Assembly (NCBI GenBank): GCA_002719395.1
Contig: PBHM01000021.1
Span: 56,066-110,664 of the forward strand
DNA from: Methanobacteriota archaeon
GTDB lineage: Archaea > Thermoplasmatota > Poseidoniia > Poseidoniales > Poseidoniaceae
Direction: 5' to 3'
Length of the DNA stretch: 54,599 nucleotides
The notes beneath the pieces were generated by a model. The model had not been told where the DNA came from and searched no databases. It worked only from the letters and a program-made list of their open reading frames with translations. Shown in pieces: positions 2,931 through 54,599 of the stretch. Both the position numbers and the translations under genes were made by a program. The stretch's first letter is position 1. Every line of letters begins with the position of its first letter.

Positions 2931-3862
2931 GCTGTCATTGCATCGAGTTGAATGCCTTCTCCCCCGCCTTCAATCAGGCGATAGTCCGTTTCAGCCATGA
3001 TTTCAGTGAGTTCAAGTTTTTGTGGTTCGGATAAGAAGTCAACTTGATACAATTCACGGTGGAGCTGGTTTACGAAATCAGTACCTGCTAAACCAAATTT
3101 ATCCAGAATCTCTCTCATGCGCCTTCTTGCCACATGAAATCCATCGGATTTGCATGATAACATGTACTGTTGTAGAGATTCAGGTGGCGCTGTTGCAGTG
3201 GTTTCATAGACCAAGTCTTTGGTGATCTTTTCCTTGTTCAAAGCCGCTGCCACTTGAAGTGCAGTAAGGGCTTTACGTAAATCGCCTTGGCTGATTCGAA
3301 CCAATGCTTGTGCTCCGTCTTCCTCAAGTCCAACCTCCTCGGCTTGCGCAACCAAAATAACTTGGTCGTGCACATCCGCATCTGATAATGGCCTAAAGCG
3401 AAAAACTGCGCATCTTGATTGTATGGGTTCAATAATTTTTGAAGAGTAGTTGCAACTGAGGATAAATCTGCAGGTTTCAGCGTATTGTTCCATTATTCGT
3501 CGTAGCGCACCTTGTGCATCATGGGTAAGTGCATCGGCTTCATCAAGAAAAATTACTTTGAATTCAGCCTTGCCAAATGGCTTGGTTCGAGCAAATTGCT
3601 TTACTTTTGTTCGAATACTTTCCAACTTTCGCTCATCAGATGCATTCATTTCAAGCAAATTCTCTCTGTATTGTGTACCAAAAACATCTCTGGTTAATGC
3701 CATGGCTGCTGTGGTTTTTCCGGTACCCGGTGGACCTGCAAAAAGTAGATGGGGAAAATCGGTAGTCTGCGCATATGCTGCAAGTCTTTGCACGATGGAC
3801 GGTTGTCCCCGAATGTCTTGCACTGAATGAGGGCGATGTTTTTCCACCCACAACTCACTCAT
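2903..3862 (-). CDS. rfcS: Replication factor C small subunit (clamp loader ATPase)
   Basis: This AAA+ subunit of the archaeal clamp loader opens PCNA and places it on primed DNA. At 319 aa it has the normal length for RfcS. Visible motifs are the RFC N-terminal signature W-V-E-K-H-R-P (residues 5-11), Walker A GPPGTGKTT (43-51), Walker B FLDEAD (105-110), sensor 1 around SCNYSSKI (136-143) and the SRC arginine-finger motif (149-151). The C-terminal helical collar is present. The start ATG at 3862 gives the usual MSELWVEKHRP beginning. The gene is divergent from the giant surface-protein gene, with about 110 bp between them. No large subunit gene lies in the window. Confidence 0.97.
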   Translation of the reverse strand: MSELWVEKHRPHSVQDIRGQPSIVQRLAAYAQTTDFPHLLFAGPPGTGKTTAAMALTRDVFGTQYRENLLEMNASDERKLESIRTKVKQFARTKPFGKAEFKVIFLDEADALTHDAQGALRRIMEQYAETCRFILSCNYSSKIIEPIQSRCAVFRFRPLSDADVHDQVILVAQAEEVGLEEDGAQALVRISQGDLRKALTALQVAAALNKEKITKDLVYETTATAPPESLQQYMLSCKSDGFHVARRRMREILDKFGLAGTDFVNQLHRELYQVDFLSEPQKLELTEIMAETDYRLIEGGGEGIQLDAMTAQISSVLNP

Positions 3863-3875
3863 GTTCTAACTGAAA

Positions 3876-3921
3876 AGGCGAATGCCCTTGAACATTCGCT
3901 TGTGAAAGTCTCAATTTTGAG
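3876..3921. promoter_or_regulatory. Inverted repeats between divergent rfcS and surface-protein genes
   Basis: GCGAATG at 3878-3884 is mirrored exactly by CATTCGC at 3893-3899. The spacer is 8 nt and outer bases extend the pairing weakly. Directly after it, CTCAA (3910-3914) and TTGAG (3917-3921) form a second perfect inverted repeat. Both sit between the rfcS start (3862) and the promoter-like element of the plus-strand gene. They could be operators or RNA hairpins; function is inference. Confidence 0.4.
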
Positions 3922-3930
3922 TTCTCTGGC

Positions 3931-3947
3931 CGAAAGGAAACTATACC
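3931..3947 (+). promoter_or_regulatory. Putative BRE/TATA element of the giant surface-protein gene
   Basis: CGAAAGGAAACTATACC contains a purine-rich BRE-like stretch followed by a TATA-like core (ACTATAC). The core is centred about 30 nt before ATG 3974. That spacing fits an archaeal promoter driving a leaderless or nearly leaderless transcript. Confidence 0.4.
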
Positions 3948-3973
3948 ACCGCTTTTATGCACGTTTGAGTCCG

Positions 3974-15767: not shown

Positions 15768-17432
15768 TCACTCTTCTTCAGCGATCTTTTCGATTTCCTC
15801 TAAAAATTCGTTTTCATCGATAAATCCACTTTTATCGAGGTCAATCGTATGAAAAATCTCTTCTAAATCCTTGGAGGTGAGCATGAAGTCAAGTGCTCGT
15901 ACGGCTATTTTGAATTCTTGCAAGTTGAGTTTATTCTTTTCACCTACATCTGCAGCATGGAATGCGGCCCTTCTTCTCTTTTCCTCAATTTTGACAGGGC
16001 CAAACATTTTTTCGGAGAAACTTTGGAAAGGTGTCTTTCTTTTGTCATCATGCGATTTGCCATATCCGTAGTACAGGATTAAACCGAGAATGATAGCAGA
16101 ACCCCCACCAATTACAGCTTTGTCACCCATGATGACTAGTAGGTAAATGCCACCAATAATTCCCCACCATTGAATCCAAGGATAGAAGTGAGACCTATAC
16201 TCAGGTAAATACCAATCATGCTCTTGGCTTGAAGAACGTAATACCATTACACAAGCATTAATGAAAACGAAAATCATAATCTTAAATCCTGAAGCAAGCT
16301 TGGCTACATCTTTTACTGGTAGAAATAAAATGCATATTCCCATTGCGACAGATGTGATGACAATTGGCCAGAATGGTGTTTCATATTTTGGATGTACTTC
16401 GGCTAAGTTTTGAGGAAGTAAGTGGTCTTTGCCCATGGCAAAGATGAAACGAGATGCTGCGAGAATGCCGGCTAAAGCCATGGAAATAATGGTTAAAATA
16501 GCCATAATTGCGATGATCAAACCAACAGTTGGACCAGCGACAGCTTCGACAAATATGTAAATTGAATCTTCTCTTATTTTTCCATCACTGCCATACCACC
16601 ATTCACCAGGGATGGTAGCGCCTATCATGAAGGTAACAAATACGTAAAGTGCAGTAGAGATCAGTAAAGAAAGCATGATGCCAACAGGTAAGTTCCTTCC
16701 TGGGTTTTTTACTTCCCCTCCTATGGCTGCTACTTTGGTAACCCCGGCGTAAGCAACAAACACGAAAGCAGTGGCCTCACCAATTTTGAGAGGTTCATTC
16801 TTCAGAGTCGATAATGTATCACTGAATGGTCTTGATAAATCTGTGCTCGGGTCGAAAAGTTGAATGATGCATACAAGCATCAAAAGAGCTAAGGTAACGC
16901 CAAGTATTGGGTATTGAAAGGATTTGATTTTTTTCATTCCAAGGATATTTAGAATTGTAATCAAGACAAGCGCACTTAGTGAAATCACAGTGAGTTGAAT
17001 ATTGATGCTAAAGTACGTGGTAATCACATACATGTAGGCTGAAAAACCAATCAGTGCAACGGCAGATTTCAGCATCGCAGAAGCCCATAATCCCAATCCG
17101 CTAATCGTACCAAATAACCGACCAAATGTACGCTCAAGGTATACGTAAGAACCCCCACTTGAAGGCATGGCTGACGCCAACTCTGACTTTGACAATGCTG
17201 CTGGTAAAACCACTGATGCTGCCAATAAATACGCTAACCAGATTCCATTCCCCGCAATCTCACCTACAAAGGCAGGAAGGACAAATAATCCGGTTCCGAG
17301 CATAGATGATAAACAGATGACGATGACGCCAAATAGACCTAAACTTCTCTCTAGGGTCATGGAAATTTTTGTTCGAACTTCTCCAGTGGCTAATGCCATT
17401 TTCCTACGAGGGTCAATGTTTGCAGAACTCAT
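15768..17432 (-). CDS. APC-family amino-acid permease fused to C-terminal EF-hand domain
   Basis: Residues about 28-470 form a polytopic APC-superfamily transporter. The first helix carries the GTGLFVLPA signature, the PSSGGSYVYLERTFG motif lies after helix 2, and GEVKNPGRNLP sits in the loop after the sixth helix. Such proteins move amino acids or amines by proton or sodium symport or by exchange. The last 70 residues are soluble and hold two EF-hands. The second has a perfect calcium loop, DLDKSGFIDENE (bases 15807-15842); the first (DVGEKNKLNLQE) is degenerate. This suggests transport gated or tuned by calcium. The start codon overlaps the stop of the upstream ring-cleavage gene by 4 bp, so it closes that operon and may import the substrate. 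Substrate identity is not visible. Confidence 0.9.
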   Translation of the reverse strand: MSSANIDPRRKMALATGEVRTKISMTLERSLGLFGVIVICLSSMLGTGLFVLPAFVGEIAGNGIWLAYLLAASVVLPAALSKSELASAMPSSGGSYVYLERTFGRLFGTISGLGLWASAMLKSAVALIGFSAYMYVITTYFSINIQLTVISLSALVLITILNILGMKKIKSFQYPILGVTLALLMLVCIIQLFDPSTDLSRPFSDTLSTLKNEPLKIGEATAFVFVAYAGVTKVAAIGGEVKNPGRNLPVGIMLSLLISTALYVFVTFMIGATIPGEWWYGSDGKIREDSIYIFVEAVAGPTVGLIIAIMAILTIISMALAGILAASRFIFAMGKDHLLPQNLAEVHPKYETPFWPIVITSVAMGICILFLPVKDVAKLASGFKIMIFVFINACVMVLRSSSQEHDWYLPEYRSHFYPWIQWWGIIGGIYLLVIMGDKAVIGGGSAIILGLILYYGYGKSHDDKRKTPFQSFSEKMFGPVKIEEKRRRAAFHAADVGEKNKLNLQEFKIAVRALDFMLTSKDLEEIFHTIDLDKSGFIDENEFLEEIEKIAEEE

Positions 17433-18844
17433 TCATCATCACCAAAGCGAGCCACAACTTTCATCTCCACTGCAATTGGCGTAGGTAGGGCTTTGATGGC
17501 TATGGTCGTTCTCGTGGGACCATAGGCTCCAAGCGTTTCAGCCCAAACTTCATTGTATCCTTTAAAATCACGATCCATGTCGATGAGAAAAGTCGTAACA
17601 TCGACTACGTTTTCAAGTGATGCTCCTGCTTCATTGAGTATTTTTTCAATATTTGAAACGACGGCTCTTGTTTGTGCTTTGATATCATAATCAACTGCTT
17701 TGCCGTTTTCGTCTTTAATCGCTCCACCCGGTATTTGACTGGTCCCTGGTTGTCTTGGCCCAACACCGGAGAGATACAGGACATTTCCTTCACGTCGTGC
17801 ATGAGGATATGCTCCAACTGGTTTGGGTGCTTCTTGACTATTCACCGATGTGTTGGTATCCGTCGGCTCCCATAATTCAGGATGTTGGGAGTGAATTGGC
17901 TGTTCTTTTATCTCAACCAGGTTCGAATCTTTTCCTTCATCAAGTACGTCCCTATCTCCTGCAAATGTTTCTACAGAATCTTCATCATATTCTTTGTCAC
18001 CTTGGCCACTTGATGTTGGATCGAGGACAACAACTGCCGCTCCAGCGCCGTGAATAGGTTCGTAGCCTAGGACCTCGCCTGTTAGATCATTTCTGTGTTG
18101 GTTCATTGAAGAAAGCCACCACATGGGTTTGAATGCAACGACTTTTTGTACCCTGATTTGATGATGAATTGTTCTGGATAATTGGGCCACATCTTCGAGT
18201 CTTCCTGCTCCTAGAAATTCCAATATTTTGAGGTTCCATTCATCATCCTTTGCTGAATGAATTCGGTCTTCATGAGGTTGTATAGGTGCTGTAAACATTC
18301 GATTCGATAAACTCATGATTGAAACAGCAACGGCTTTTCTACCTAATTGGTTGATTGCATCCAAACAGGATTTGGCAAGAACCGTCGTTTCGGCACGATT
18401 GGCATAAACATTTGATGAACAAATCACCACTGGCAATCTGTTGTCTGGATTGAGTAATTTACAGGCAACAACTGAACCTACGTCAATTGGAAATCCATCA
18501 TAGGCGACTTTCCGACTTTCCAGTCCACGATTTTGATTTGCTTTATGCCATGCTTCAGCTAATTCGGTGTCTACCCTGAATTGGTATGGAATTGAACCTA
18601 AGTCATGGAAGTCCGCATCAACCAGTACCCATTCAGGATTTGGATGTGCTTGAATTTGGTGACCAATAATGCTCGGCCATAACGTCGAATAGATGACAAG
18701 AACATCGGCATCTGTTTGTTCAATGATTTCTCTAGCATTGTCGTAGGCTTCACGAATTTTACCCCAGCCCTCGTTTTTTTCTGGTGCGAGTAGAGGATGC
18801 GGGTGGGCAGGAACCACGAGAGATTTCACTGGTTGGGCGGTCAT
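17429..18844 (-). CDS. Aminophenol dioxygenase alpha-like subunit fused to RidA-type 2-aminomuconate deaminase
   Basis: This is a two-domain protein of 471 aa. ATG 18844 is chosen because it overlaps the upstream TGA as ATGA, although the frame extends to 18874. Residues about 1-265 are LigB-fold (class III extradiol dioxygenase). The iron-site positions seen in the neighbouring subunit are lost here: SPHW becomes STLW and SLSHRHF becomes SLSNRMF. This fits the non-catalytic alpha subunit (AmnA type). An acidic linker follows. Residues about 341-471 are a complete RidA/YjgF domain with the conserved Arg in GPTRTT and Glu in AVEMKVVAR, as in AmnD, which hydrolyses 2-aminomuconate to 4-oxalocrotonate and ammonia. 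In bacteria these are separate genes. Assignment of the exact substrate is inference; the RidA half could instead be a general enamine/imine deaminase. Confidence 0.85.
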   Translation of the reverse strand: MTAQPVKSLVVPAHPHPLLAPEKNEGWGKIREAYDNAREIIEQTDADVLVIYSTLWPSIIGHQIQAHPNPEWVLVDADFHDLGSIPYQFRVDTELAEAWHKANQNRGLESRKVAYDGFPIDVGSVVACKLLNPDNRLPVVICSSNVYANRAETTVLAKSCLDAINQLGRKAVAVSIMSLSNRMFTAPIQPHEDRIHSAKDDEWNLKILEFLGAGRLEDVAQLSRTIHHQIRVQKVVAFKPMWWLSSMNQHRNDLTGEVLGYEPIHGAGAAVVVLDPTSSGQGDKEYDEDSVETFAGDRDVLDEGKDSNLVEIKEQPIHSQHPELWEPTDTNTSVNSQEAPKPVGAYPHARREGNVLYLSGVGPRQPGTSQIPGGAIKDENGKAVDYDIKAQTRAVVSNIEKILNEAGASLENVVDVTTFLIDMDRDFKGYNEVWAETLGAYGPTRTTIAIKALPTPIAVEMKVVARFGDDE

Positions 18845-43741: not shown

Positions 43742-44725
43742 ATGGATGGGATGGACTACATTTCCACCTCTCGTGTTTTGAGCCTGCTTGTTGGACTTTT
43801 TTGGGCTGCATATCTTGACTTGAAGTCAAGACGTGTCCCGAACGCTTTTTGGATTACATGGGCGAGTCCTGCTATATTTTTATGGACGCTTGAATTGTTG
43901 ATTTTAGAAACCCCCTGGTATATTTTTGCCACTGCAGCAGGAGTTGTCGCATATGCTTCAATGTCAGTATTAGGAACACCATCATTCCAAGATATAATGA
44001 AAAAATCATATGTTGATATCGTTGTTACGATTTGGTATATCTTTGCATTGTTTGGTATTCTCGTTGGTCTCTATCACCATGGTAATGTGAATTTCTTAGA
44101 TTTAGTGAACGGGAGTGCCGATGAAATGTCATCCATTTGGTGGTCAACAATACTCGCAGCGATTCCTATTTTGATTTTTGATTTAGCATGGCGACTTCGA
44201 TTGATCCACGGAGGTGCCGACGCTAAAGCCCTCATGTGGATTGCCATTCTTATCCCAAGTTGGAATGTGGTGAATGTTGTATACCCCGAAAATATGGATA
44301 ATGCTATCATCGTTCTTCCACCTTCAATTTCTTTACTCATTTGGGGTGGTTTCATATTTTTACTCCTACCGTTTGTGATGGTAATCAAAAACTTAGCGAC
44401 ATATGGAATGGGTCCGCTCCGGTTGATATGGCATGCTGAAAGAATGCCTCTTTCTGAAGTCAAACAAAAGCACGTCTGGTTACTTTCAGAAATGATGGCG
44501 ATGCCATCTGGTGATTATGGAGTGCATCATCGAACAAGGGCACCTAGACGAACACCTACTGCAGAAGAATTAGATGCTCAAATCGATGCTCTCAAAGAAG
44601 CGAATATCGAGATGGTATGGGTAACTCGAAAATACCCATTATTGGTATTTTTAATACCTGCATTGTTACCTTGGTATCTACTTGGAGGTCCAATGGCGTG
44701 GTTCATGCCACTTATTGGTCTCTGA
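43742..44725 (+). CDS. Archaeal type IV prepilin peptidase (FlaK/PibD/EppA-like, A24 family)
   Basis: This 327-aa membrane aspartic protease cleaves class III signal peptides of archaellins and pilins. The two catalytic aspartates are visible at Asp26 (AAYLDLKSRRVPN) and Asp160 (IHGGADAKAL, the GxGD-type motif in a GGAD form). Several helices surround them (AIFLWTLELLIL, YIFATAAGVVAYA, SLLIWGGFIFLLLPFVMVI). A cytoplasmic segment of about 75 aa precedes the last helix pair. Start 43742 is chosen for the promoter spacing; ATG 43751 and 43718 remain possible. No pilin or archaellum gene is in the window, so its substrates lie elsewhere. Confidence 0.88.
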   Translation: MDGMDYISTSRVLSLLVGLFWAAYLDLKSRRVPNAFWITWASPAIFLWTLELLILETPWYIFATAAGVVAYASMSVLGTPSFQDIMKKSYVDIVVTIWYIFALFGILVGLYHHGNVNFLDLVNGSADEMSSIWWSTILAAIPILIFDLAWRLRLIHGGADAKALMWIAILIPSWNVVNVVYPENMDNAIIVLPPSISLLIWGGFIFLLLPFVMVIKNLATYGMGPLRLIWHAERMPLSEVKQKHVWLLSEMMAMPSGDYGVHHRTRAPRRTPTAEELDAQIDALKEANIEMVWVTRKYPLLVFLIPALLPWYLLGGPMAWFMPLIGL

Positions 44726-44909
44726 GATCAGTTACCCTTTCGCTCAACGTTCTTTGGACGAAGTCCCTTGTAACTGCATTTCCTGCAAGATGCGGCTCTC
44801 CAAGCATTTCTCGCATTGCAACGCATGCATATCTTGCGTCGTAGCATGCGATTCTCTGCTTCAGGGAATCTCGCCATACCGCCGGCTGACACTGCCCATA
44901 TTTAATCAC
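44712..44909 (-). CDS. Possible small protein (65 aa)
   Basis: A minus-strand frame starting at GTG 44909 is preceded by GGAG at a proper distance and overlaps the 3' end of the prepilin peptidase gene by 14 bp. The product is basic and helical ([20 protein letters not shown]), with three Cys and no recognised domain. It occupies most of the gap of about 230 bp between the two plus-strand genes. The ribosome binding site and sensible composition favour a real gene, but conservation cannot be tested here. Confidence 0.42.
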
Positions 44910-44958
44910 AACTACTCCAAATAGTCTGTTTGAAATCCTATGTCGTTTTGGGAGATAT

Positions 44959-45732
44959 GTGCGCCTCGTACGATTGCCCGGAATTCACCACGATGCAAAT
45001 GCGCATCTGGTGATTGGAAAAGAGGAATCATGGCTCATTGATGCAGGAACATCTTGGTACCAGTTGTTACAAGTTGAACGAATGAAATCAAAAGTAGAAC
45101 AAAAGAATACTATCAACAAAATTTTTCTTTCTAGTCGTCGTTTTCCCTACAGTGGCGGTGCTAAATTCATTTCAGAACAATTTGATGATTGTTCCATTTT
45201 TGTAGGAGATGCTGCTATTCCCGCTCTTTCCCGAGGTGATTTTTTTTCAACTTGGGCAAATCGCTTTGATTCAGACATGCCTCCAATTGATTGTGAACCT
45301 ATTGTTAATGGTGATCACCACTACATTGATGATGAATTGATGGTGTGTATTAACACTCCTGGATTTGCTATGGAAGGTTTTTCATTTTACTTTGAAAACA
45401 AGGGAGTTTGTGTGGCCCCATCGGTTATTCATCGAGCTGATTTACCAATACGATGGAATCTACCCGGAGGTCAAATTAGCGAACTTCATGATAGCATAGA
45501 AGAATTGTTGTCTCTTGAGTTAGAAACATTGGTTCCATCAAAGGGCCCCTCCATAAAGGGGAGAGGGCACATTCTCGAAGTATTAAATCGGCATTTGGAT
45601 TTTCTATCAGAGGTCATTGATAATGAAGGAGAGTTATTGCGTGGTTGGAAACGTCCAGTTCCAACAGCGATGTATTTCTCTCCCCCAAGTCCTTGGCCAT
45701 TGGATGAAATTGAGGAAAGTCAGCATCAATAG
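44959..45732 (+). CDS. Metallo-beta-lactamase-fold protein lacking the metal-binding residues
   Basis: This 257-aa protein follows the MBL fold in order: HLVIGKEESWLIDAGTSW matches the first strands, and IFLSSRRFPYSGGAKFISEQF matches the active-site loop and its helix. Where active enzymes have H-x-H-x-D-H, this one has S-x-R-x-P-Y. The later ligands are also changed: TPGFAMEG where TPGHTPG is usual, SVIHRADL in place of the bridging Asp motif, and SKGPSIKGRG instead of a PGHGP-like turn. It is therefore a catalytically dead or repurposed member. Start GTG 44959 has GGAG at close spacing. The role is unknown; a structural or regulatory function is possible. Confidence 0.8.
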   Translation: MRLVRLPGIHHDANAHLVIGKEESWLIDAGTSWYQLLQVERMKSKVEQKNTINKIFLSSRRFPYSGGAKFISEQFDDCSIFVGDAAIPALSRGDFFSTWANRFDSDMPPIDCEPIVNGDHHYIDDELMVCINTPGFAMEGFSFYFENKGVCVAPSVIHRADLPIRWNLPGGQISELHDSIEELLSLELETLVPSKGPSIKGRGHILEVLNRHLDFLSEVIDNEGELLRGWKRPVPTAMYFSPPSPWPLDEIEESQHQ

Positions 45733-46013
45733 TGATTATCATCTTTCTTTTCTTTCTTCATGATTCGATAACAGGATTTGCAAATTCTGACTCGCCCTTT
45801 ACGAACTTCAAAACCACTTTCTCCCCAAACATCAATCGCATCGTCCTGGCTGATTGAACGACCTCCCATGTGCTTGTCTGAAAAACCATCACAAGATTTG
45901 ATTCCACACTTGATTTCACCAGATTTCTTATCCTTTGCAGCACTCTTTCGCTTTTTCAGATTAGTAGGAATACGGGTTTTCCTCTGGCTTCGCTTTGTCC
46001 TGTCGTGGACCAT
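45726..46013 (-). CDS. Small basic zinc-binding protein
   Basis: This 95-aa, strongly basic protein has a Lys/Arg-rich N-terminus (KRSQRKTRIPTNLKKRKSA) and a likely zinc site. The site consists of Cys-x4-Cys (CGIKSC) and a later Cys-x2-Cys (CKSC) near the end. Such small proteins often bind RNA, DNA or the ribosome. It overlaps the 3' end of the MBL-like gene by 7 bp and lies 36 bp downstream of tfb on the same strand, so it could be co-transcribed with the transcription factor. I do not recognise a named family. Confidence 0.8.
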   Translation of the reverse strand: MVHDRTKRSQRKTRIPTNLKKRKSAAKDKKSGEIKCGIKSCDGFSDKHMGGRSISQDDAIDVWGESGFEVRKGRVRICKSCYRIMKKEKKDDNHY

Positions 46014-46049
46014 GTGCCCTCCTCAAGAAGGTACTTCATCAAGATTGGC

Positions 46050-47039
46050 TTAATTTTTGCTCGCTTCGCCAATTTTGCGCAAAAGTCCATCAATCATCTT
46101 AAGCAATCCTCGAAGAGTGACCTCAGAGATGTTTGAAATCGCACATACATCCGCTTGTGTACGGTTGTGTCCGGATTCTTTAGCAGCTTTGTAAATCAAT
46201 GCAGCCGCAACCCCCATCGGCTTTTTGCCTTGCCACACGTCTGGATGAGGGCGAATAGCACTCCACAAGTGATCGATTTGCATTCTTGTATTCGGTGGGA
46301 GACCTAATTCGTTGATGAATCTATCAAAATATTGACTGGGTTCTGAAATTGTGTGTAGATTGAATCTTCGAGATATGTGGCGAATCATTCGAGATAACTC
46401 CTTCTCATCGACCATGAAAGCCTCGGAGAATTCGGGAATCTGGCGAGGGATATTCTCCTGTCTCGCAACGAGGTAACAACAGGCTGCTGATACCCCTGCA
46501 ATGGAACGTCCTGTAACAAAGCCTTCGTCAGAAAGCCTGCGATATAACCTGGCACATTCTTCTTGCATGGAAACTGGTAAACCGGATTTGTCTCTTATCA
46601 TTTGATTTGCTTTGATGAGATTTCTCGCACGGCTTTGACGGGTTTTAGCGCGCTCATCGATGACTCTTCGTCGGCGCCATTCCCTTCTTGCTCGACTCGA
46701 CATCCCAAATCTTGAAGCTCCCATGGATGTCAAATCCGAAGGTGCAATTGAGGTGTTAAGTCCTTTGTCTGCAAGCCTGAACGTCATGGGTGCTCCAACC
46801 CTACTTCTGTCTTCACCAGAGTCATGATTTGTCCACTCTGCCCCAGGGTCGATCATCGCTTGTTCAGTGACCAAGCCGCAATGGTTGCATACAACTTCTC
46901 CTCTGGTTGTATCTTCAGTCCAATCGGTAGCACCACACTCTTCGCAGGGGCGTGTGTTACCAATGGTTTTCCTGTGAATTCTACCACCGTTTTCTTTCCG
47001 ACCGGCATCTCTGTCTCCTTTGAATTCCGATTTGCTCAT
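46050..47039 (-). CDS. tfb: Transcription initiation factor B
   Basis: TFB bridges TBP-bound promoter DNA and RNA polymerase. The 329-aa protein has an N-terminal zinc ribbon (PCEECGATDW and VCNHCGLVTE), a B-finger/linker region around DPGAEWTNHDSGEDRSRVG, and two cyclin repeats. These include GRSIAGVSAACCYLVAR in the first and KKPMGVAAALIYKAAK in the second. The ribosome binding site GGAGGTT lies 6 nt before ATG 47039 and a TATA box lies further upstream. This gene has a real leader, unlike several neighbours. Confidence 0.96.
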   Translation of the reverse strand: MSKSEFKGDRDAGRKENGGRIHRKTIGNTRPCEECGATDWTEDTTRGEVVCNHCGLVTEQAMIDPGAEWTNHDSGEDRSRVGAPMTFRLADKGLNTSIAPSDLTSMGASRFGMSSRARREWRRRRVIDERAKTRQSRARNLIKANQMIRDKSGLPVSMQEECARLYRRLSDEGFVTGRSIAGVSAACCYLVARQENIPRQIPEFSEAFMVDEKELSRMIRHISRRFNLHTISEPSQYFDRFINELGLPPNTRMQIDHLWSAIRPHPDVWQGKKPMGVAAALIYKAAKESGHNRTQADVCAISNISEVTLRGLLKMIDGLLRKIGEASKN

Positions 47040-47045
47040 CTTCTC

Positions 47046-47084
47046 AACCTCCAGTTGTATAGTTAGTCTCCGACTTATATAAAC
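47046..47084 (-). promoter_or_regulatory. TATA box and ribosome binding site of tfb
   Basis: On the minus strand GTTTATATAAG (47075-47084) is a near-ideal archaeal TATA box. GGAGGTT (47046-47052) lies 6 nt before the tfb ATG. A start of transcription about 25 nt after the TATA box would leave a leader of roughly 10-15 nt containing the ribosome binding site. Confidence 0.65.
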
Positions 47085-47244
47085 CTCACGCTTTTCTGCC
47101 TCAAAAATCGAAAGCGAGAGAGAATATTAGGTGGACTCCTCCTTATTACAGAAGATTGTAAAGAACTATATCAATAGCCGTTTTTTATCAGTATTTCAAG
47201 TCATTACATTCATTTGCTGCTTTCATTAGCGTTAACTGATTATC

Positions 47245-48531
47245 ATGCCGGCTACAGTGGTCTTGGGAGCACAATGGGGTGACGAAGGAAAAGGAAAACT
47301 CGTCGATCGAATGGCTGAATCAGCAGTTTGGGTAGCTCGTTTCCAAGGAGGAAATAATGCTGGTCATACCGTGGTGATAGGTGATCGTGTGCTGAAGTTT
47401 CACCTATTACCATCAGGCATCACTCGAGAGGATTGCGGCCTCATACTTGGCGATGGAATGGTGATTGACCCTTGGGTTTTGGATAAGGAATTGAATGATT
47501 GGGTCGAAAGTGGAGGAGATGACCCAAGAGGCAAGCGGTTATTTATCTCGAACCGAGCCCACATTATCCTTCCTTTTCACCGATATCTCGACGGCTTGGA
47601 TAAGAAAATAGGTACAACCGGTCGGGGTATTGGTCCTACATATGCGGACAAGATCAACAGAGTTGGTTTACGTTTTGCCGATTTGGATGAAGTTGATGTC
47701 TCTGATATGGTGAAAAGGCAAAACCACGCTCTGGAGGCGGCAGGATGTGAACAGCGTATAGATGCGAGCGAACTGAAAGCAGAACTTGAATGGATTCGAA
47801 CAACCTATGGTCATTGCATCAAAGAAACAGGTCTATTGCTGGATTCAGCGATGAAAATGAACGAGCGCATCGTTCTTGAAGGCGCACAAGGTTGCTTACT
47901 TGATATCGACCAAGGTACCTACCCTTTCGTGACAAGCAGCGTCACAAGCCGAGGTAATGCCAGTCATGGAGCAGGGATTCACCCCGGTCATATCGATCGA
48001 GTGGTTGGCATCACCAAAGCATATATTACAAGAGTTGGAAATGGAGCGATGCCAACTGAATTAGATGATGAATCGGGCGCACACATGGCTTCTGTTGGGC
48101 ATGAGTTTGGAACCACAACAGGTCGCCCACGTCGATGTGGTTGGTTTGATGCAGTGGTGATGAGACATGCACAGCGAATCAATGGATTTACAGAAATAGC
48201 ATTGACCAAACTCGACGTACTTGGTGGCCTTGATGTCCTCAAAATTTGTGTGGCTTACGAACTTGACGGAAAAGAAATCCATGAAATGCCTCCACAAGCC
48301 TCAGCACTTGCTCGGTGTAAACCGATATACGTAGAAATGCCAGGTTTCCCAGCCCATGCTTTGCATGAATGGCTCGAAATCGCGAAGAAATGCAATGCAG
48401 AGAATCTTGGATTCTCAGGTTTACCCGCTGCTGCGCAGCATTACATTCAACGCTTGGAAGATCTCATCGGTGCGCCAATAACAAGCGTTGGTGTCGGTCC
48501 TGACAGAGATGCGACCATTGACAAGGTCTGA
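47245..48531 (+). CDS. purA: Adenylosuccinate synthetase
   Basis: PurA joins IMP and aspartate with GTP to form adenylosuccinate, the first committed step to AMP. The 428-aa protein is full length. Signatures are QWGDEGKGKLVD (GTP loop with catalytic Asp), GGNNAGHTVV (catalytic His), GTTGRGIGPTYADK, LEGAQGCLLDIDQGTYPFVTSS and TTTGRPRRCGWFD. The space before it (47100-47244) is AT-rich. ACTATATC at about 47165 might be its TATA box, but no clear ribosome binding site is seen. A small hairpin and tRNA-Ala follow. Confidence 0.97.
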   Translation: MPATVVLGAQWGDEGKGKLVDRMAESAVWVARFQGGNNAGHTVVIGDRVLKFHLLPSGITREDCGLILGDGMVIDPWVLDKELNDWVESGGDDPRGKRLFISNRAHIILPFHRYLDGLDKKIGTTGRGIGPTYADKINRVGLRFADLDEVDVSDMVKRQNHALEAAGCEQRIDASELKAELEWIRTTYGHCIKETGLLLDSAMKMNERIVLEGAQGCLLDIDQGTYPFVTSSVTSRGNASHGAGIHPGHIDRVVGITKAYITRVGNGAMPTELDDESGAHMASVGHEFGTTTGRPRRCGWFDAVVMRHAQRINGFTEIALTKLDVLGGLDVLKICVAYELDGKEIHEMPPQASALARCKPIYVEMPGFPAHALHEWLEIAKKCNAENLGFSGLPAAAQHYIQRLEDLIGAPITSVGVGPDRDATIDKV

Positions 48532-48550
48532 TTTGAGGTGAAGACTCAAA
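48532..48550 (+). other. Hairpin after purA
   Basis: TTTGAG and CTCAAA form a perfect 6-bp inverted repeat with a 7-nt loop immediately after the purA stop and 26 nt before tRNA-Ala. No T-run follows directly. It could help end purA transcription or be chance. Confidence 0.25.
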
Positions 48551-48576
48551 AACAATTGACTCCCGCAAGAGGTTAG

Positions 48577-48649
48577 GGGCGCTTAGCTCAGCTGGAAGAG
48601 CGTCTGGTTTGCAACCAGAAGGCCGGGGGTTCAAATCCCCCAGCGTCCA
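48577..48649 (+). tRNA. tRNA-Ala (TGC)
   Basis: A 73-nt cloverleaf has acceptor GGGCGCT pairing with AGCGTCC. It includes the G3-U70 wobble that identifies alanine tRNA. The D arm is GCTC/GAGC, the anticodon stem is TCTGG/CCAGA with loop TTTGCAA (anticodon TGC), and the T arm is GGGGG/CCCCC. The discriminator is A and CCA is not encoded. No intron is present. Its 3' half is repeated 2.4 kb downstream, so it serves as the anchor of the accessory region. Confidence 0.96.
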
Positions 48650-48650
48650 C
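48618..48650 (+). repeat. Direct repeat, left copy (tRNA-Ala 3' end)
   Basis: These 33 bp cover tRNA positions 42-73 plus one base and are repeated without mismatch at 51052-51084. A tRNA 3' end as repeat core is the usual att site of archaeal and bacterial integrative elements. Confidence 0.8.
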
Positions 48651-48723
48651 TCCGTTTACATTAATGAGAGACGTAGACGCTTTGCCACTGGCATCCCTTG
48701 TTGCGCTCGGTCCGACCCATTGG

Positions 48724-48735
48724 CCCCAGCGTCCA
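48724..48735 (+). repeat. Short tRNA-Ala 3'-end fragment
   Basis: CCCCAGCGTCCA matches the last 12 bases of the upstream tRNA-Ala exactly. It lies 75 bp beyond the tRNA, in non-coding DNA. It may be the scar of an earlier insertion. A 12-bp match could arise by chance, but its place beside the tRNA makes that less likely. Confidence 0.45.
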
Positions 48736-48895
48736 AATTGAAACTTGCTATGCCTCAATACACGTAATTCGGCGTAATGATTTTCCTGAAACGCAGCGAA
48801 GTGGCTTGTCTGTACTGACCATCTTGCATGGCCGTCCCGGTTCCATAAGAGGATGTGACCGGAACGGCTATGAGTTGAAGGGTTTAGTCCCCAGC

Positions 48896-50233
48896 ATGGT
48901 GGAAATCGAGTCCATGGTTCCCATCGCTGCGGTAGTGGACCTCGTTTTGGGCATCGCCACGCTGTCTATCATCTCTAGAAGTCAGGGGACCTCAGCCAAC
49001 AACAGGATCGTTGGATGCATCCTCGGCTGGATTCTGGTGTTCCTCGGACTGAGTTACATTATGACCTCCATACTTGAATTCCGGTACGGGGCACTGGCGG
49101 ATTTCTCTGCCGTGGACCGAGACAAAGTCGGGGGCACCTTCGCGTTCACGGCCAAGAACCTCCTCTTGTCCTCGGCCTACATGCTGATGGTGCTACTTCC
49201 GTTTTTCTTCCCCTTTCGGCTCATCAACAGGGAGTGGGACCTCTGGTTTCTGCTGGCAGGTGTGTGTGTGGCCTGCGCAGTATTTACGGCCATGCACTTG
49301 ATGACCAATTTCGAGCATTTTCAGGTGGAGAATTTCCTCTTTATTCCGGGGTATGTCGTGCTGATTTCGATGTACATTCGCTTTATTATCACGGAAGCTC
49401 GCGACAACGATGAACGCCTAAGGAAAGTTTCTGTCGTGGTGGGCTTGGTGCTTATTGGTATCCACGGCGAGACCATGACTTACTGGCTGTCGCAAGTGCT
49501 CTCAATCAACGACCTGTTCTTCCAGCGTCAATCCATTCAGAGCGGCTTGAGTATCTCAGCCGCTGCTTGGGGCGGCATCAACACTCGACTGACTCTTGGT
49601 GCCACGGCCATGCTGGTGTTGTGCGCAGGTGAGGCATGGCGTTCATTCAAAGTTGGCCTTTCTCCCTTCGGTGTTCTGACCTTTATCATATTCATCATCG
49701 GCTTCGTTGCGGGTTTGGCTGACTTGGCGGTCCTCGACGTGGTGCGCAGCTGCTACGAGACGCAATGTGAAGCCTTCCCAGTCGCATACACAATCTGGTA
49801 CGATTTCACCTCGGAGGCTCTCGTGTACCTCTACACGCCAATTTTGTTCATGTTCATTCTTTTGCACTACGACATAGTTGACACCAAGCGTGAAGAGAAC
49901 CGATGGCTGATCCGCATCATTGTCATCTTGATGCTGCTCATCGTGTCCTCGACCATCCTCGAACTCATCCAGTCCTTCCTTCCCATTCCCGACATGATTT
50001 CCTCCGCAGCGCTAGCCATCGTGGTGGGCATCTTCATCGGGTGGGAGGAGCGCATCGTGAAAAGCCTCATCGACGATTCAGCCTCCATCCAAGAAACGGT
50101 CCCCGACTTCGCGTTGCCCGAAATCGAGCATGACTTTGCCTCTCCTCGCTTGTTCAACCTCGTCTTCGGGGGCGTGACGGCCTTCATCCTTATCGTCTCG
50201 CTGCTCTTCACCGGTTTGGGGGTGTTGGGATGA
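48896..50233 (+). CDS. Polytopic membrane protein of the GC-rich cassette
   Basis: The frame is open from 48698, but the first 66 codons look non-coding. ATG 48896 begins directly before the first helix and gives about 445 aa (ATG 48914 is an alternative). Roughly ten to twelve helices fill the protein (VVDLVLGIATLSII, ILGWILVFLGLSYIMT, MLMVLLPFFFPF and so on). Loops contain paired acidic residues, and two Cys lie in one loop (SCYETQCEAF). No transporter or kinase signature is visible and I do not recognise the family. Codons ending in G or C are much commoner than in the genes around it, which points to acquisition from a GC-richer relative. The start of the next gene overlaps its stop by 4 bp. 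Confidence 0.8.
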   Translation: MVEIESMVPIAAVVDLVLGIATLSIISRSQGTSANNRIVGCILGWILVFLGLSYIMTSILEFRYGALADFSAVDRDKVGGTFAFTAKNLLLSSAYMLMVLLPFFFPFRLINREWDLWFLLAGVCVACAVFTAMHLMTNFEHFQVENFLFIPGYVVLISMYIRFIITEARDNDERLRKVSVVVGLVLIGIHGETMTYWLSQVLSINDLFFQRQSIQSGLSISAAAWGGINTRLTLGATAMLVLCAGEAWRSFKVGLSPFGVLTFIIFIIGFVAGLADLAVLDVVRSCYETQCEAFPVAYTIWYDFTSEALVYLYTPILFMFILLHYDIVDTKREENRWLIRIIVILMLLIVSSTILELIQSFLPIPDMISSAALAIVVGIFIGWEERIVKSLIDDSASIQETVPDFALPEIEHDFASPRLFNLVFGGVTAFILIVSLLFTGLGVLG

Positions 50234-50922
50234 GTTCGGACGACACCATCACATCGCGCAGTTTACTGGTAACGCGTGAATCTCGCGTCCCGACCGCCGT
50301 GGCGTTGCTCGTCACGGTGGTGATGATGACAGTGACCATGGTGGACTTCGTTGGCGACCTGCGGGCCACCGACACGTTCACTTCGAATACCCCCGATTGG
50401 AACCTCACGTTCGACGTTCAAAACTACACTATGCAGGCCGTCGAAACCCTGCAGGACGATGAGACCAGAAACCTGGAGTTTGACATGGCCGAGGTCATCA
50501 TCCCGGAAGGGTACTCCTTAGGTTTGATCGACGTCACCATCACGTCCGAAGAGGAAGAAGGCATCTCCGTACAGTGCGATTCTGTGGCAGGTGACCTCAT
50601 CGAAAACGGCTTGACGGCGCAATGGAACAGCCCGATGAGCAACCTCTCGGGACAGGACAGCAGTTGCCAACCGATCGAACTCTCGTTGCAGGTGTATCCT
50701 GATTTTGACGGTCGTTCCATCACGGTTTCTGCGGTCAACGAATATCAGGCGATGCAACATTGGCTCCAGGACGGATGGGGTCAAGGTGTGCTCTCGGTTG
50801 ACCTCGAACTTGACGTGAATTCCCCGCTAGGATTCGATCCGATCGGACAAGACACGGACGAGGAGATCACCGTGGACGTGACGGTAATCATGTTCAAGGC
50901 CAACATTTCGCTCGTCGAGTGA
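50230..50922 (+). CDS. Membrane-anchored exported protein of the GC-rich cassette
   Basis: This 230-aa protein has one N-terminal membrane helix at residues about 21-41 (TAVALLVTVVMMTVTMVDFVG). An exported acidic beta-rich domain of about 185 aa follows, containing two Cys (VQCDSVAG and DSSCQP) that could form a disulfide. Several Asn-X-Ser/Thr sites are present. The ATG overlaps the stop of the polytopic membrane-protein gene (ATGA), so the two are translated together and probably form a complex. Base composition matches that gene and differs from both flanks. No family is recognised. Confidence 0.8.
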   Translation: MSSDDTITSRSLLVTRESRVPTAVALLVTVVMMTVTMVDFVGDLRATDTFTSNTPDWNLTFDVQNYTMQAVETLQDDETRNLEFDMAEVIIPEGYSLGLIDVTITSEEEEGISVQCDSVAGDLIENGLTAQWNSPMSNLSGQDSSCQPIELSLQVYPDFDGRSITVSAVNEYQAMQHWLQDGWGQGVLSVDLELDVNSPLGFDPIGQDTDEEITVDVTVIMFKANISLVE

Positions 50923-50990
50923 ACCACGCCGGTGTCGAGCATTCGGACGTTTCTTGTCTGGTAATTTGCTTCCACAGGGATGATTTGCAT

Positions 50991-51006
50991 CCTGCCTAGC
51001 GGCAGG
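50991..51006 (+). other. Hairpin before the tRNA-like copy
   Basis: CCTGCC and GGCAGG form a perfect 6-bp stem around TAGC, about 70 bp after the cassette's last stop and 5 bp before the decayed tRNA copy. It may end cassette transcription; function is not shown. Confidence 0.3.
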
Positions 51007-51010
51007 GCAG

Positions 51011-51083
51011 GGGTACCTTGCTCAGGTGGAAGAGAGTCTGGTTTGCAATTGGAAGGCCGGGGGTTCAAATCCCCCAGCGTCCA
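51011..51083 (+). pseudogene. Decayed tRNA-Ala copy
   Basis: This segment is exactly as long as the intact tRNA-Ala (73 nt) and differs at nine positions, all in the 5' 41 bases. The last 32 bases are identical. The acceptor stem is broken (GGGTACC against AGCGTCC leaves two mismatches) and the anticodon stem depends on G-T pairs. The anticodon loop TTTGCAA is intact, and CCA follows at 51084-51086. It is unlikely to be a working tRNA. It is probably a relic attachment site or a captured tRNA copy. Confidence 0.8.
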
Positions 51084-51084
51084 C
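51052..51084 (+). repeat. Direct repeat, right copy (tRNA-Ala 3' end)
   Basis: This is the perfect second copy of the 33-bp repeat at 48618-48650. Together they bracket about 2.4 kb of GC-rich cassette DNA. To the right the composition changes abruptly to AT-rich. Confidence 0.8.
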
Positions 51085-51086
51085 CA

Positions 51087-51319
51087 CGAATTCCAGTGTT
51101 CGAACCTTCATTTTCCTTATCATGCCCAAACTCTTTGATAATTAATATAATTGAAGAAGTTGTATGATATGTATGACTATCTCAATCACGTCGAGACCTT
51201 CATAATGGAAATGTTACTAGATTAATCCATGACGGCGGGTGACGAGATTGGGCTTGACTGCTCAGGTATGTACTCACAAAAGTTTCATCAACCTCGATAA
51301 TGAAGGAGGCGTATTGTAG
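51087..51319. other. AT-rich non-coding leader of the restriction-modification locus
   Basis: No credible gene is visible in these 233 bp. An AT-rich stretch around 51141-51152 (AATTAATATAAT) could be a TATA region. GGAGG at 51305-51309 lies 10 nt before the mod start. A ten-codon frame starts at 51266 and stops just before the ribosome binding site; it could be a leader peptide, or chance. Confidence 0.5.
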
Positions 51320-53292
51320 ATGCCATTAAGCGAAACATTGGAAAAACAACTGAGAAAAGAGAATAACTTCGTTACTGATAATGGAGAGTTAAAAAAATGG
51401 GTAGTGATAAAGAAAGCACATGATTTTGATCCCGTACTTATTGAATTATTACTCGATAATAAGGACTTGAAAGAAAAATTTTTTGTTGATGTAAAAAACA
51501 CACTAGTTTTCAAAAAGGATCAGTTTGTACTATTTTAGAACAGAAAAACTACCTAAACAACAGTTACACTAAATTCAAAAACAAGGTAGGGTTGGTAACC
51601 GGCGGCAGATTTCTGAAGCAACGCAATGATGTAGTACTTAGTTGGCCATTTAAAGATTGTATTTTGGAAGGTGGGCAAAGCAAAGATGAAGACAAACGAC
51701 AAGAGGTTTTTTTTAACGAAATATTAGCACAAGACGAAATTACACAACTTCTTGAACCCAAGATTTTGACCAACGCTAAAACATATAGTAAAAAACATGG
51801 ACACGATTTTGAAGGTTTTCGTAGAGATGCAGAAACTAATTGGAAGAGAGGACTACCAAAGGATACTATAAATGACAACCTAATTATCAAAGGTAACAAT
51901 CTATTGACGAGCCATAGTATCGTGAAGGAATTTGGTGGGAAGACGAGATTAGTATACCTCGATCCACCTTACAACACGAAAGGTGCCGCAAACACCTTCA
52001 GTTATAATAATTCATTCAATCACTCCTCATGGATGACATTTATGAAAAATAGGATTGAGGTCAGTAAAAAACTTCTAAAAAAAGATGGAGTAATTGCTGT
52101 TGCAATTGATAATGAAGAGGTATTCTATTTGGGTTTGATACTCGATGAAGTCTTCGGACGGGAGAACCGATTAGGCACTGTGGTTGTTGTTCACAATCCT
52201 GGAGGGAGACAGGATGATCATTTCTTCCCCTCCGCGCACGAATATTTATTGATATACGCTAAGGATAAATCACAAGCTAAAGTGAATACTCTTGGTATTT
52301 CGGGAAAAAAATTACAAGAATACAAAGAAGAGGATAAATTTGGGAAGTATAAACTCAGAAACTTCAGAAGAAGTGGAAATAATTCGAAGAGAGAGGACCG
52401 TGAAAATTTATTCTACCCAATTTACGTTGATCCCAAAACCCGAGATTTGAGCCTGATTGAGAAAAAAGGTTTTGTTAAATTGTTACCCATTGATCCCAAG
52501 GGTGTTGAGAGATGTTGGAGATGGGGCCAAGACACACTACTTGAGAAAATGGAAAAATACATCGCTGTCAAAGAGACAAAAAATGGATTTGACCTTTATA
52601 CGAAAGAGAGAGAAAGCGATTACAAAGGTGAAAAACCAAAATCCTTCTGGAACAAGCCGGAATACTCGGGCCAAGCTGCTACAAATCAGTTAAAGAAATC
52701 TTTCGGTGAAAAGGTATTCAGCTACCCAAAGTCTCCATATTTGATGAGGGATATAATAAATTGTTTAACTGACGAAAATGACATAGTAATTGACATTTTT
52801 GCGGGTAGTGGGACTACAGGCGTAGTTGCTCACAAACTAAACAGGCAATATATCTTAATCGAACAAATGGACTATGTTGAAGCGATTCCAGTTTTGCGAC
52901 TATTGAAAGCCATTGAAGGAGACCAAGCAGATATATCTGAAGAAGTAGATTGGAAAGGTGGTGGATCTTTTACTTATTTTGAACTAAAGAAATACAACCA
53001 AACATTTTCTGAACAAATAGAAGATGCTGAAGACAGCGAAACCTTACTACAAATATGGGAGAGGATGAAGGAAAAATCTTTCCTGAATTACAATGTTGAT
53101 ATTCAGAAACAAGAAGAACATATTGATGAGTTTAAAACGTTCGAATTAACGCAACAGAAGAGACATTTACAGGGGTTGTTAGATCAAAATCAATTGTACG
53201 TGAATCTATCTTCAATAAACGACAAAGACTTCACAATAAGCGAGGGAGAAAAACAATTGAGCAATGATTTTTACCGAATCGGAAGGGATTAA
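51320..53292 (+). CDS. mod: Type III restriction-modification methyltransferase Mod, interrupted by a frameshift
   Basis: Mod recognises DNA and methylates adenine-N6, and is needed by Res for cleavage. The first part (51320-51538, MPLSETLEKQLRKENNF) ends in TAG within the run CTATTTTAG. Shifting by one base at 51533-51538 restores the frame at LEQKNYLNNSYTKFKNK, followed by the conserved FLKQRNDVVLSWPFKDC. The rest runs to 53292. The repaired protein would be about 658 aa. Catalytic motifs follow the beta-class order: DPPYNTKG first, then DIFAGSGTTGVVAH. One T seems to be missing (TTTT where TTTTT is expected). That could be a mutation, a sequencing error or a phase-variable site. GGAGG lies 10 nt before the ATG. 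Base composition is clearly AT-rich compared with the host genes. Confidence 0.88.
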
Positions 53293-53294
53293 TC

Positions 53295-54599
53295 ATGGCG
53301 TATTTAGATGATGAGTTCAAGGGCACAATCGCTAGAATGTTCCTGAATCAAGTTGACGTGCCTACCTTCATATCGGACAATCTGAGATACAACATCCGCC
53401 CATACCAAGAGGAGTCATTCAAAAGATACATTTTCTTGGATTCAGAGGATTCTGTCTTTAACCTGAACAAGCCTTATCACTTGCTTTACAACATGGCAAC
53501 CGGCAGTGGAAAGACTTTGGTGATGGCGGGCTTAATGCTTTATTTGTTTGAGAAAGGATACCGCAACTTTTTATTTTTTGTGAACTCGAACAACATCATA
53601 AACAAAACCAAAGAGAATTTTTTAAACAGCCAAGCATCAAAATACCTGTTTAGTGAGAAGATTTCTATTGGTGGGATAGATGTCCAAATCAAGGAGGTTG
53701 ATACTTTCGAGGAGGCGGATAATCTGAACATCAATATCAAGTTCACTACCATCCAGAAACTCCATAGTGAGTTGAATAATCCAAAAGAAAATAGTGTTAC
53801 TTATGAGGATCTAAAAGATAAAAAAATTGTCTTAATTTCTGACGAAGCCCATCACATTAATGCTGGAACAAAACAAGGAAGCCTATCTGGAAGTTGGGAA
53901 GAAACCGTAATGCGTATACTAAAATTAAACCCAATTGATAACATTATGCTAGAATTTACGGCAACATTGGACTACGATAGCGCAGAAATTTCCGAGAAAT
54001 ACAAAGATAAACTAATCCAGAGATACGATCTCGCAGAATTTAGGAAAGATAAATATTCTAAGGAAATTAATCTACTCGTGTCGCTATATGATGAGAATGA
54101 AAGAATAATTCAAGCATTGATTTTAAGTTTGTATCGACAGGAGTTAGCAGCATCAAAAGGTATCAACTTAAAGCCAGTAATTCTATTCAAAGCAAAAAGA
54201 ACCATAAAAGAATCAGAAAGAAACAAAATCAAATTTCACAAATTGATAGATGAATTTTCAGTGGAAATGGTTGAAAATATCCAAAAAACATCCACTGTTG
54301 AAATCGTACAAAAAGCATTTGCGTTTTTCCAGAGAAATGAGATTTTACCAATACAAATCGTAGAGAGAATAAAACATTATTTTAGAGACGAAAACTGTAT
54401 TAGTGCAAACAATGATGCTGAAGCAGAATTGAACCAAATTCGGCTAAATACCTTGGAAGATGAGAACAACCCGATTAGAGCAGTTTTCTGTGTTCAAAAA
54501 TTGAATGAGGGATGGGATGTGCTAAACCTCTTCGATATTGTTCGTTTGTATGAAGGTCAAAATACAGGAGGTTCAAACAAAACCGCTGGAAAAACAACA
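53295..54599 (+). CDS. res: Type III restriction enzyme Res subunit (partial, runs off the window)
   Basis: ATG 53295 follows the mod stop by 2 bp and 435 codons are open to the window end. This is a superfamily 2 helicase/translocase that cuts DNA with Mod. Motifs seen are the Q-like IRPYQEESF, Walker A NMATGSGKTLVMAG, motif II ISDEAHHINAG, motif III LEFTATLDY, and the later VQKLNEGWDVLNLFDIVRLYEG region. The C-terminal nuclease domain (PD-ExK) would lie beyond the window. Composition matches mod. The pair with a tRNA-linked position is typical of an acquired defence module. Confidence 0.92.
   Translation, partial: MAYLDDEFKGTIARMFLNQVDVPTFISDNLRYNIRPYQEESFKRYIFLDSEDSVFNLNKPYHLLYNMATGSGKTLVMAGLMLYLFEKGYRNFLFFVNSNNIINKTKENFLNSQASKYLFSEKISIGGIDVQIKEVDTFEEADNLNINIKFTTIQKLHSELNNPKENSVTYEDLKDKKIVLISDEAHHINAGTKQGSLSGSWEETVMRILKLNPIDNIMLEFTATLDYDSAEISEKYKDKLIQRYDLAEFRKDKYSKEINLLVSLYDENERIIQALILSLYRQELAASKGINLKPVILFKAKRTIKESERNKIKFHKLIDEFSVEMVENIQKTSTVEIVQKAFAFFQRNEILPIQIVERIKHYFRDENCISANNDAEAELNQIRLNTLEDENNPIRAVFCVQKLNEGWDVLNLFDIVRLYEGQNTGGSNKTAGKTT

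What the first reader, a model, noticed from the sequence alone, without database searches (positions are those of the whole stretch)
48577..51086. GC-rich cassette bracketed by tRNA-Ala and a decayed full-length copy
A 33-bp perfect repeat of the tRNA-Ala 3' end encloses about 2.4 kb with two co-translated membrane-protein genes of clearly different base composition. The right copy is not just the 3' end. It is a whole 73-nt tRNA with nine changes confined to the 5' part and an encoded CCA that the intact gene lacks. Either an element carried its own tRNA-Ala, or a tandem tRNA decayed while its 3' end was kept as an att site. No integrase is in the cassette.
Basis: partly seen in the sequence, partly recalled or inferred. 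Interest (0 to 1): 0.7.

Follow-up and report, generated by a model that had tools for sequence, protein, structure and literature searches.

The report
tRNA-bounded gene cassette from sister genus
In an uncultured marine archaeon, two membrane-protein genes sit between two copies of one tRNA gene because they came from a GC-rich sister genus together with that genus's own tRNA gene, joined at a tRNA site that an integrase family and its tiny derivatives use repeatedly in this group.

Summary
tRNA-Ala(UGC) at 48577-48649 is intact. The right copy at 51011-51083 has nine changes, all at positions 4-41, and an encoded CCA. The window is from a Poseidoniaceae (marine group II archaea) draft genome.

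The right copy is the donor's tRNA gene. In GC-rich sister genus "g3" the same two genes lie directly upstream of that genus's intact, CCA-less tRNA-Ala, at the same purA locus; 48860-51084 matches at 89% DNA. The same-genus sister lacks the cassette and has tRNA-CCA. So the right tRNA is a mosaic: donor promoter and 5' part, recipient 3' end and CCA. This is the expected product of one crossover in the tRNA 3' end.

The left border, 48650-48735, is an 86-bp unit bounded by the tRNA end sequence CAGCGTCCA. It recurs at tRNA-Ala in at least four genera of the family. The cassette has no integrase. Relatives carry tyrosine integrases beside the same tRNA, separated from it by this unit in one genome, and in two of them the integrase C-terminus reads into the tRNA.

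Best reading: a non-autonomous member of a tRNA-Ala integrative element family that captured donor chromosome. New variant of a known kind. The mechanism is inferred, and an assembly chimera is not fully excluded.

The parts
47245..48531 (+). purA (adenylosuccinate synthetase), conserved left flank of the tRNA-Ala locus
   Evidence: Pfam PF00709 E=1e-149. Also precedes tRNA-Ala in other genera of the family.
48577..48649 (+). intact tRNA-Ala(UGC), the recipient's own gene; 3' neighbour is CTCC, no CCA
   Evidence: 87% colinear match to same-genus G001 over 44000-48650, ending exactly at the tRNA 3' end.
48650..48735 (+). 86-bp 'unit': preceded by the tRNA end CAGCGTCCA and ending GGCCCCAGCGTCCA; left border of the cassette
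   Evidence: Same unit directly behind tRNA-Ala in G009, G020, G044, G164, G172, G180, G192. nhmmer E=3.9e-19 for the window copy, which is itself in the model.
48736..48859 (.). 124 bp of unknown origin between unit and donor-derived segment; its end forms one arm of a hairpin (48831-48841 with 48858-48868)
   Evidence: No match in 171 family genomes; hairpin read from the sequence.
48860..51083 (+). segment derived from a GC-rich g3-like genus: gene1, gene2, g3-type promoter region and tRNA-Ala
   Evidence: 89% DNA identity and colinear with G020 and G050; GC3 0.72 against 0.75-0.81 in g3 copies.
48896..50233 (+). gene1: 445-aa polytopic membrane protein of unknown function
   Evidence: 96% aa identity to G050 and G020; dN/dS about 0.05; about 13 helices in the AF2 model, pLDDT 56.
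50230..50922 (+). gene2: 230-aa protein, one N-terminal TM helix plus beta-rich domain with two conserved cysteines; overlaps gene1 by 4 bp
   Evidence: 85-87% aa identity to g3; model pLDDT 72; C116 and C146 invariant in five homologues.
51011..51083 (+). decayed, mosaic tRNA-Ala copy: donor 5' part, 3' 32 nt identical to both donor and recipient
51084..51086 (+). encoded CCA, the recipient's, displaced to the distal end of the insertion
   Evidence: Empty sites read tRNA-CCA; tRNAs carrying the unit read tRNA-CTTTGC.

Best explanation
The cassette is a horizontally acquired, integrase-less insertion at the 3' end of tRNA-Ala(UGC). A piece of chromosome from a GC-rich Poseidoniaceae genus (g3-like), consisting of gene1, gene2, the native tRNA-Ala promoter and that tRNA-Ala gene, was joined to an 86-bp att-bounded unit, most simply as a circle. 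It recombined once with the recipient's tRNA-Ala within the shared 3' end, so the intact left tRNA keeps the recipient 5' part and is followed by element DNA, while the right copy has the donor 5' part and the recipient 3' end with CCA. The redundant right copy has decayed. Shown: donor lineage, mosaic structure, displaced CCA, recurrence of the unit, and integrases beside the same tRNA in relatives. Inferred: circular intermediate, integrase supplied in trans, and timing of the decay.
For: Donor: in G050, G020 and G164 (g3) the order is purA, WD40-type gene, gene1, gene2, tRNA-Ala. G013, same genus, has purA, WD40-type gene, tRNA-Ala without the pair. dS between the cassette and g3 (0.33-0.41 for gene1) equals dS within g3 (0.35), and GC3 agrees. 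The 88-bp region upstream of the right tRNA is 75-77% identical to g3 and unlike the recipient promoter. Recipient: homology to sister G001 ends exactly at 48650; the G001 tRNA is followed by CCA and no cassette. CCA rule: tRNAs without the unit (G001, G004, G008, G010, G016, G021, G040) are followed by CCA; tRNAs followed by the unit (G009, G020, G044, G164, G172, G180, G192) lack it, and CCA reappears at a distal border in G009, G044, G180, G192 and the window. Machinery: G180 has tRNA-Ala, unit, then a convergent PF00589 integrase. G022 and G173 have an integrase of the same family whose C-terminus (GGRWGI) reads into tRNA-Ala, and G017 and G144 have one whose 3' end overlaps tRNA-Arg. Hot spot: six of the 22 family genomes besides the window's own have a contig end within 60 bp downstream of this tRNA.
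Against: The integrase family was not found in G000 or in the g3 genomes tested, though G000 is only 77% complete. The donor homology begins abruptly at 48860 without an att core, so the left joint of the donor DNA is not explained by site-specific recombination. 48736-48859 has no known source. No exact empty site with the window's right flank was found, because the restriction-modification segment is unique to this genome. All evidence comes from draft metagenome assemblies. G050 (g3) has a tRNA followed by neither CCA nor the unit, so its own downstream history is unclear.
Confidence: 0.68

Rival explanations
1. Homologous recombination without an integrase: a linear g3 chromosome fragment entered the cell, recombined through the 73-bp near-identical tRNA-Ala genes, and its other end was joined illegitimately.
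For: tRNA-Ala is nearly identical across the family and lies at the same locus in donor and recipient. The left joint at 48860 shows no att core. No integrase of the tRNA-linked family was found in G000.
Against: The att-bounded 86-bp unit lies exactly at the left tRNA border, as in other genera, and integrases sit at this tRNA in relatives. The CCA displacement fits a crossover at the very 3' end.
Confidence: 0.18
2. Assembly chimera: short-read assembly joined recipient and g3-like contigs through the shared tRNA sequence.
For: The tRNA is nearly identical across the family, and contigs often end at it. The cassette closely resembles another genus. Metagenome assemblies are prone to such joins.
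Against: The right tRNA is decayed, whereas it is intact in all three g3 genomes that carry the pair, so the segment must come from a genome with another tRNA-Ala copy, as in the window. The right copy carries the recipient-type CCA. Two independent false joins at exact borders would be needed.
Confidence: 0.1
3. Tandem duplication of the recipient tRNA-Ala followed by decay of the second copy and later entry of genes between them.
For: Two copies with the 3' end preserved.
Against: The region upstream of the right copy is g3-type promoter and gene2, colinear with g3 through the tRNA; sister G001 shows one copy in its locus.
Confidence: 0.04

Closest known systems
tRNA-targeted genomic islands (Islander type, PMC4383910)
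   Same: Insertion at a tRNA 3' end, tRNA restored on one side, tRNA-derived repeat on the other, foreign composition.
   Different: No integrase inside. The displaced copy is a whole donor tRNA gene with its promoter and upstream genes, not just a 3' fragment.
Additive flexible genomic islands marked by repeats of the last 20 nt of a tRNA (Methylophilaceae tRNA-Lys, PMC10872708)
   Same: Cassettes accumulate at one tRNA, separated by repeats of its 3' end, with mostly unknown cargo.
   Different: Here the repeat includes a conserved 86-bp unit, the donor lineage is identified, and a candidate cognate integrase family is seen in relatives.
Tycheposons (as described in PMC10872708)
   Same: tRNA-bordered cargo elements of streamlined marine plankton.
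   Different: Tycheposons carry a XerD-type tyrosine recombinase; this cassette has none and is only 2.4 kb.
Charybdis elements of Poseidoniales (PMC12324425)
   Same: Small elements of the same host order; several are integrated beside tRNA genes.
   Different: Integrated Charybdis elements contain an integrase and a structural module; neither is in this cassette.
Integrons (archaeal, PMC9668308)
   Same: Cassette-like units separated by short repeated recombination sites with a possible hairpin.
   Different: No IntI or attI was identified; the anchor is a tRNA gene and the insertion behaves as tRNA 3'-end integration.

Membership tests
tRNA-targeted genomic island | Insertion begins at a tRNA 3' end and the tRNA stays intact | tested here: met
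   Homology to the sister ends at 48650; left tRNA intact.
tRNA-targeted genomic island | Displaced tRNA fragment marks the other end | tested here: met
   33-bp repeat at 51052-51084, within a full decayed copy.
tRNA-targeted genomic island | Integrase gene within the island | tested here: not met
   Only two membrane-protein genes; no recombinase by Pfam, PHROGs or NCBIfam. Relatives have one at this tRNA.
tRNA-targeted genomic island | Foreign origin of content | tested here: met
   89% DNA match to g3, GC3 contrast.
Additive flexible genomic island at a tRNA | Multiple cassettes separated by repeats of the tRNA end | tested here: met
   Met in relatives G009, G044, G175, G180, G190. In the window the unit and the cassette are two successive att-bounded pieces.
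Tycheposon | Own tyrosine recombinase next to the tRNA | tested here: not met
Charybdis element | Integrase plus structural module of a ~4.6-kb element | tested here: not met
   The cassette holds only gene1 and gene2. The hallmark protein model was not available for a direct search.
Integron | IntI integrase and attI next to the array | tested here: not met
   No integrase in the window cassette; relatives' integrases match PF00589 and read into the tRNA. IntI-specific models were not run.
Integron | Folded attC hairpins as recombination sites | tested here: inconclusive
   The unit has a conserved stem with changes on both sides at two pairs, but covariation energy is about zero and fold z-scores are -0.8 to -1.9.

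The most novel reading that the evidence does not exclude
Poseidoniaceae carry a family-wide cassette system anchored on tRNA-Ala. Tyrosine integrases whose genes read into the tRNA mobilise, in trans, att-bounded pieces that range from an 86-bp mini-element to multi-gene cassettes. Capture of a whole neighbouring tRNA gene lets chromosomal genes move between genera and lets either tRNA copy become the working one.
Probability: 0.3. Interest if true: 0.75.

Novelty: new variant of a known kind. Interest (0 to 1): 0.55.

Why it matters
It gives a base-resolved example of gene transfer between genera of abundant uncultured marine archaea in which donor, recipient, target and crossover can all be read. 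It points to a specific integrase, att core and 86-bp unit that could be tested directly, in a group with no cultured genetic system. It also shows how a tRNA gene can be replaced or duplicated by a mobile element, with the encoded CCA as a tracer of the crossover.

Tried and rejected
Gene1-gene2 as a general tRNA-bounded cassette: pairs near tRNA-Gln (G056) and tRNA-Leu (G047) showed no tRNA-end repeats bounding the pair; the own-genome paralogue on C15 has no tRNA within the 14 kb taken. Function of the pair by homology: no Pfam match above cut-off, no PHROGs, NCBIfam, PADLOC or PDB sequence match. Structures: gene1 model too weak (pLDDT 56; best Foldseek E 0.02); gene2 gave only beta-sandwich resemblances with TM below 0.5, which I do not use. 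Viral source: in IMG/VR the unit start and end patterns hit only unrelated sequence. Unit as a known RNA: the Rfam search over the region gave no match to the unit. A first comparison of the tRNA copies was out of register by one base; corrected. The partial 45-codon reading frame at right-end borders was first suspected as a separate gene; it shares the frame of the integrase C-terminus (GGRWG...), so I read it as the integrase 3' end displaced by integration (inference).

Full report
OBSERVATION. The window is contig C21 of a draft genome of the marine archaeal family Poseidoniaceae and ends at the contig end (naming by matching public records of relatives). tRNA-Ala(UGC) at 48577-48649 is intact. 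A second full-length copy lies at 51011-51083. They differ at nine positions, all between 4 and 41, and are identical over the last 32 nt plus one base. Only the right copy has an encoded CCA. The right copy has lost stem pairs and falls out of the Rfam tRNA family. Between them lie two genes that overlap by 4 bp, with GC and GC3 far from the surroundings.

DONOR. In genus g3 (genomes G050, G020, G164) the order at the same chromosomal place is purA, a WD40-type gene, gene1, gene2, promoter, intact tRNA-Ala. Window 48860-51084 aligns to this without rearrangement at 89% DNA identity, while neighbouring native genes such as purA and TFB are only 63-70% identical. Gene1 differs from the g3 copies by dS 0.33-0.41, as much as two g3 species differ from each other (0.35), with dN/dS near 0.05, so it is under purifying selection. 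G013 of the same genus has purA, WD40-type gene, tRNA-Ala with no gene pair, so the pair is variable there too. The sequence upstream of the right tRNA is g3-like (75-77% identity) and unrelated to the recipient's own tRNA promoter.

RECIPIENT AND CROSSOVER. The same-genus sister G001 is colinear at 87% from 44000 to 48650, exactly the tRNA 3' end, then diverges; its tRNA is followed by CCA and has no cassette. Across relatives the rule holds that a tRNA-Ala without the unit is followed by CCA (G050 is an exception, followed by CTCC), whereas one followed by the unit is followed by CTTTGC. In several of those arrays (G009, G044, G180, G192) CCA turns up again at a distal border. In the window the left tRNA is followed by CTCC and the CCA is behind the right copy. 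One crossover inside the last 32 nt explains this: left copy = recipient 5' part; right copy = donor 5' part + recipient 3' part + recipient CCA. At the divergence of the adjacent noncoding DNA (24%), zero changes in 32 nt has probability about 0.00015, while nine in 41 is what is expected. So the confinement of changes to the 5' part needs no special protection of an att site, although such protection is not excluded.

THE 86-BP UNIT. Between the left tRNA and the donor segment lies 48650-48735. It is preceded by CAGCGTCCA and ends in GGCCCCAGCGTCCA. The same unit, 80-88 bp, lies directly behind tRNA-Ala in g3, g4 and g9 genomes and also between other gene blocks. In a scan of 84,980 genomes for its start sequence, hits with the full unit were almost all in Poseidoniaceae or Euryarchaeota-labelled records; one was in a record titled Rhodobiaceae that is the G044 contig. 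It has a conserved stem with two positions changed on both sides, but the covariation support is weak. In G180 two copies are near-identical at two genomic places.

ARRAYS AND INTEGRASE. Other borders end in GACTCCCCAGCGTCCA, preceded by about 120 bp that is conserved between g4 and g9. In G190 two copies of such a border, 95% identical over 150 bp, flank a block with one large gene. The window genome has a single PF00589 recombinase, on another contig. A second, different integrase was found in relatives: in G180 behind tRNA-Ala and the unit; in G022 and G173 directly behind tRNA-Ala with its C-terminus GGRWGI reading into the tRNA; in G017 and G144 against tRNA-Arg. The conserved reading frame at the distal borders continues the same GGRWG frame, as expected if attP lies in the 3' end of the integrase gene and integration displaces that end. 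This last step is inference.

MECHANISM. I read the window cassette as a non-autonomous member of this tRNA-Ala integrative family that captured gene1, gene2, promoter and tRNA-Ala from a g3-like chromosome, comparable to imprecise excision in specialised transduction, and was inserted by an integrase acting in trans. The abrupt start of donor homology at 48860 and the unexplained 124 bp before it would be the joint of the captured piece. Homologous recombination without an integrase remains a fair rival. A chimera is less likely because a decayed tRNA-Ala implies a genome with another working copy, which the window has.

CARGO. Gene1 is a polytopic membrane protein and gene2 a membrane-anchored beta-rich protein with two conserved cysteines. 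The pair recurs next to tRNA-Ala: G010 and G044 behind the tRNA, G050 and G020 in front, G164 on both sides with a second divergent pair. It also recurs elsewhere in the genomes. A role at the cell surface is the most I can infer; no function could be assigned.

NOVELTY. tRNA-end islands, additive islands with tRNA-end repeats (PMC10872708), archaeal tyrosine recombinases (PMC8371274) and integrase-bearing Charybdis elements in this order (PMC12324425) are known. What differs here is transfer of a complete donor tRNA gene with its upstream genes, the family-wide 86-bp unit, and the CCA tracer. Seven literature searches found no description of this system, but the library is partial.

Noticed in passing
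51592-54599: Type III restriction-modification genes (mod and start of res) directly right of the cassette, GC 0.36; the mod-containing part (51087-53300) matched none of 166 other family genomes. The mod reading frame is broken near 51.54 kb.
   Followed up: partly
L110:9458-11773 (G164): A second, divergent gene2-gene1 pair lies behind tRNA-Ala and the unit in inverted orientation, while a g3-type pair lies in front of the tRNA.
   Followed up: partly
L027 oriented 563-2523 (G010): A divergent gene1-gene2 pair follows tRNA-Ala-CCA directly without the unit.
   Followed up: no
48831-48868: A near-perfect hairpin (10 of 11 pairs) spans the point where donor homology begins, suggesting that the true donor already had this sequence upstream of gene1.
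   Followed up: no
L215:6938-12325 (G190): Tandem array in which 150-bp repeats carrying the tRNA end core separate blocks with one large gene each; looks integron-like.
   Followed up: partly
L223, L222: Integrases homologous to the tRNA-Ala one sit against tRNA-Arg(TCT) in G017 and G144, so the family has switched tRNA targets.
   Followed up: partly
L023:12689-13624 and 16377-17741 (G009): A truncated subtilase copy at the distal border of the G009 island duplicates part of a nearby full gene.
   Followed up: no
3827-13120: A 3097-aa open reading frame in the window, not examined.
   Followed up: no
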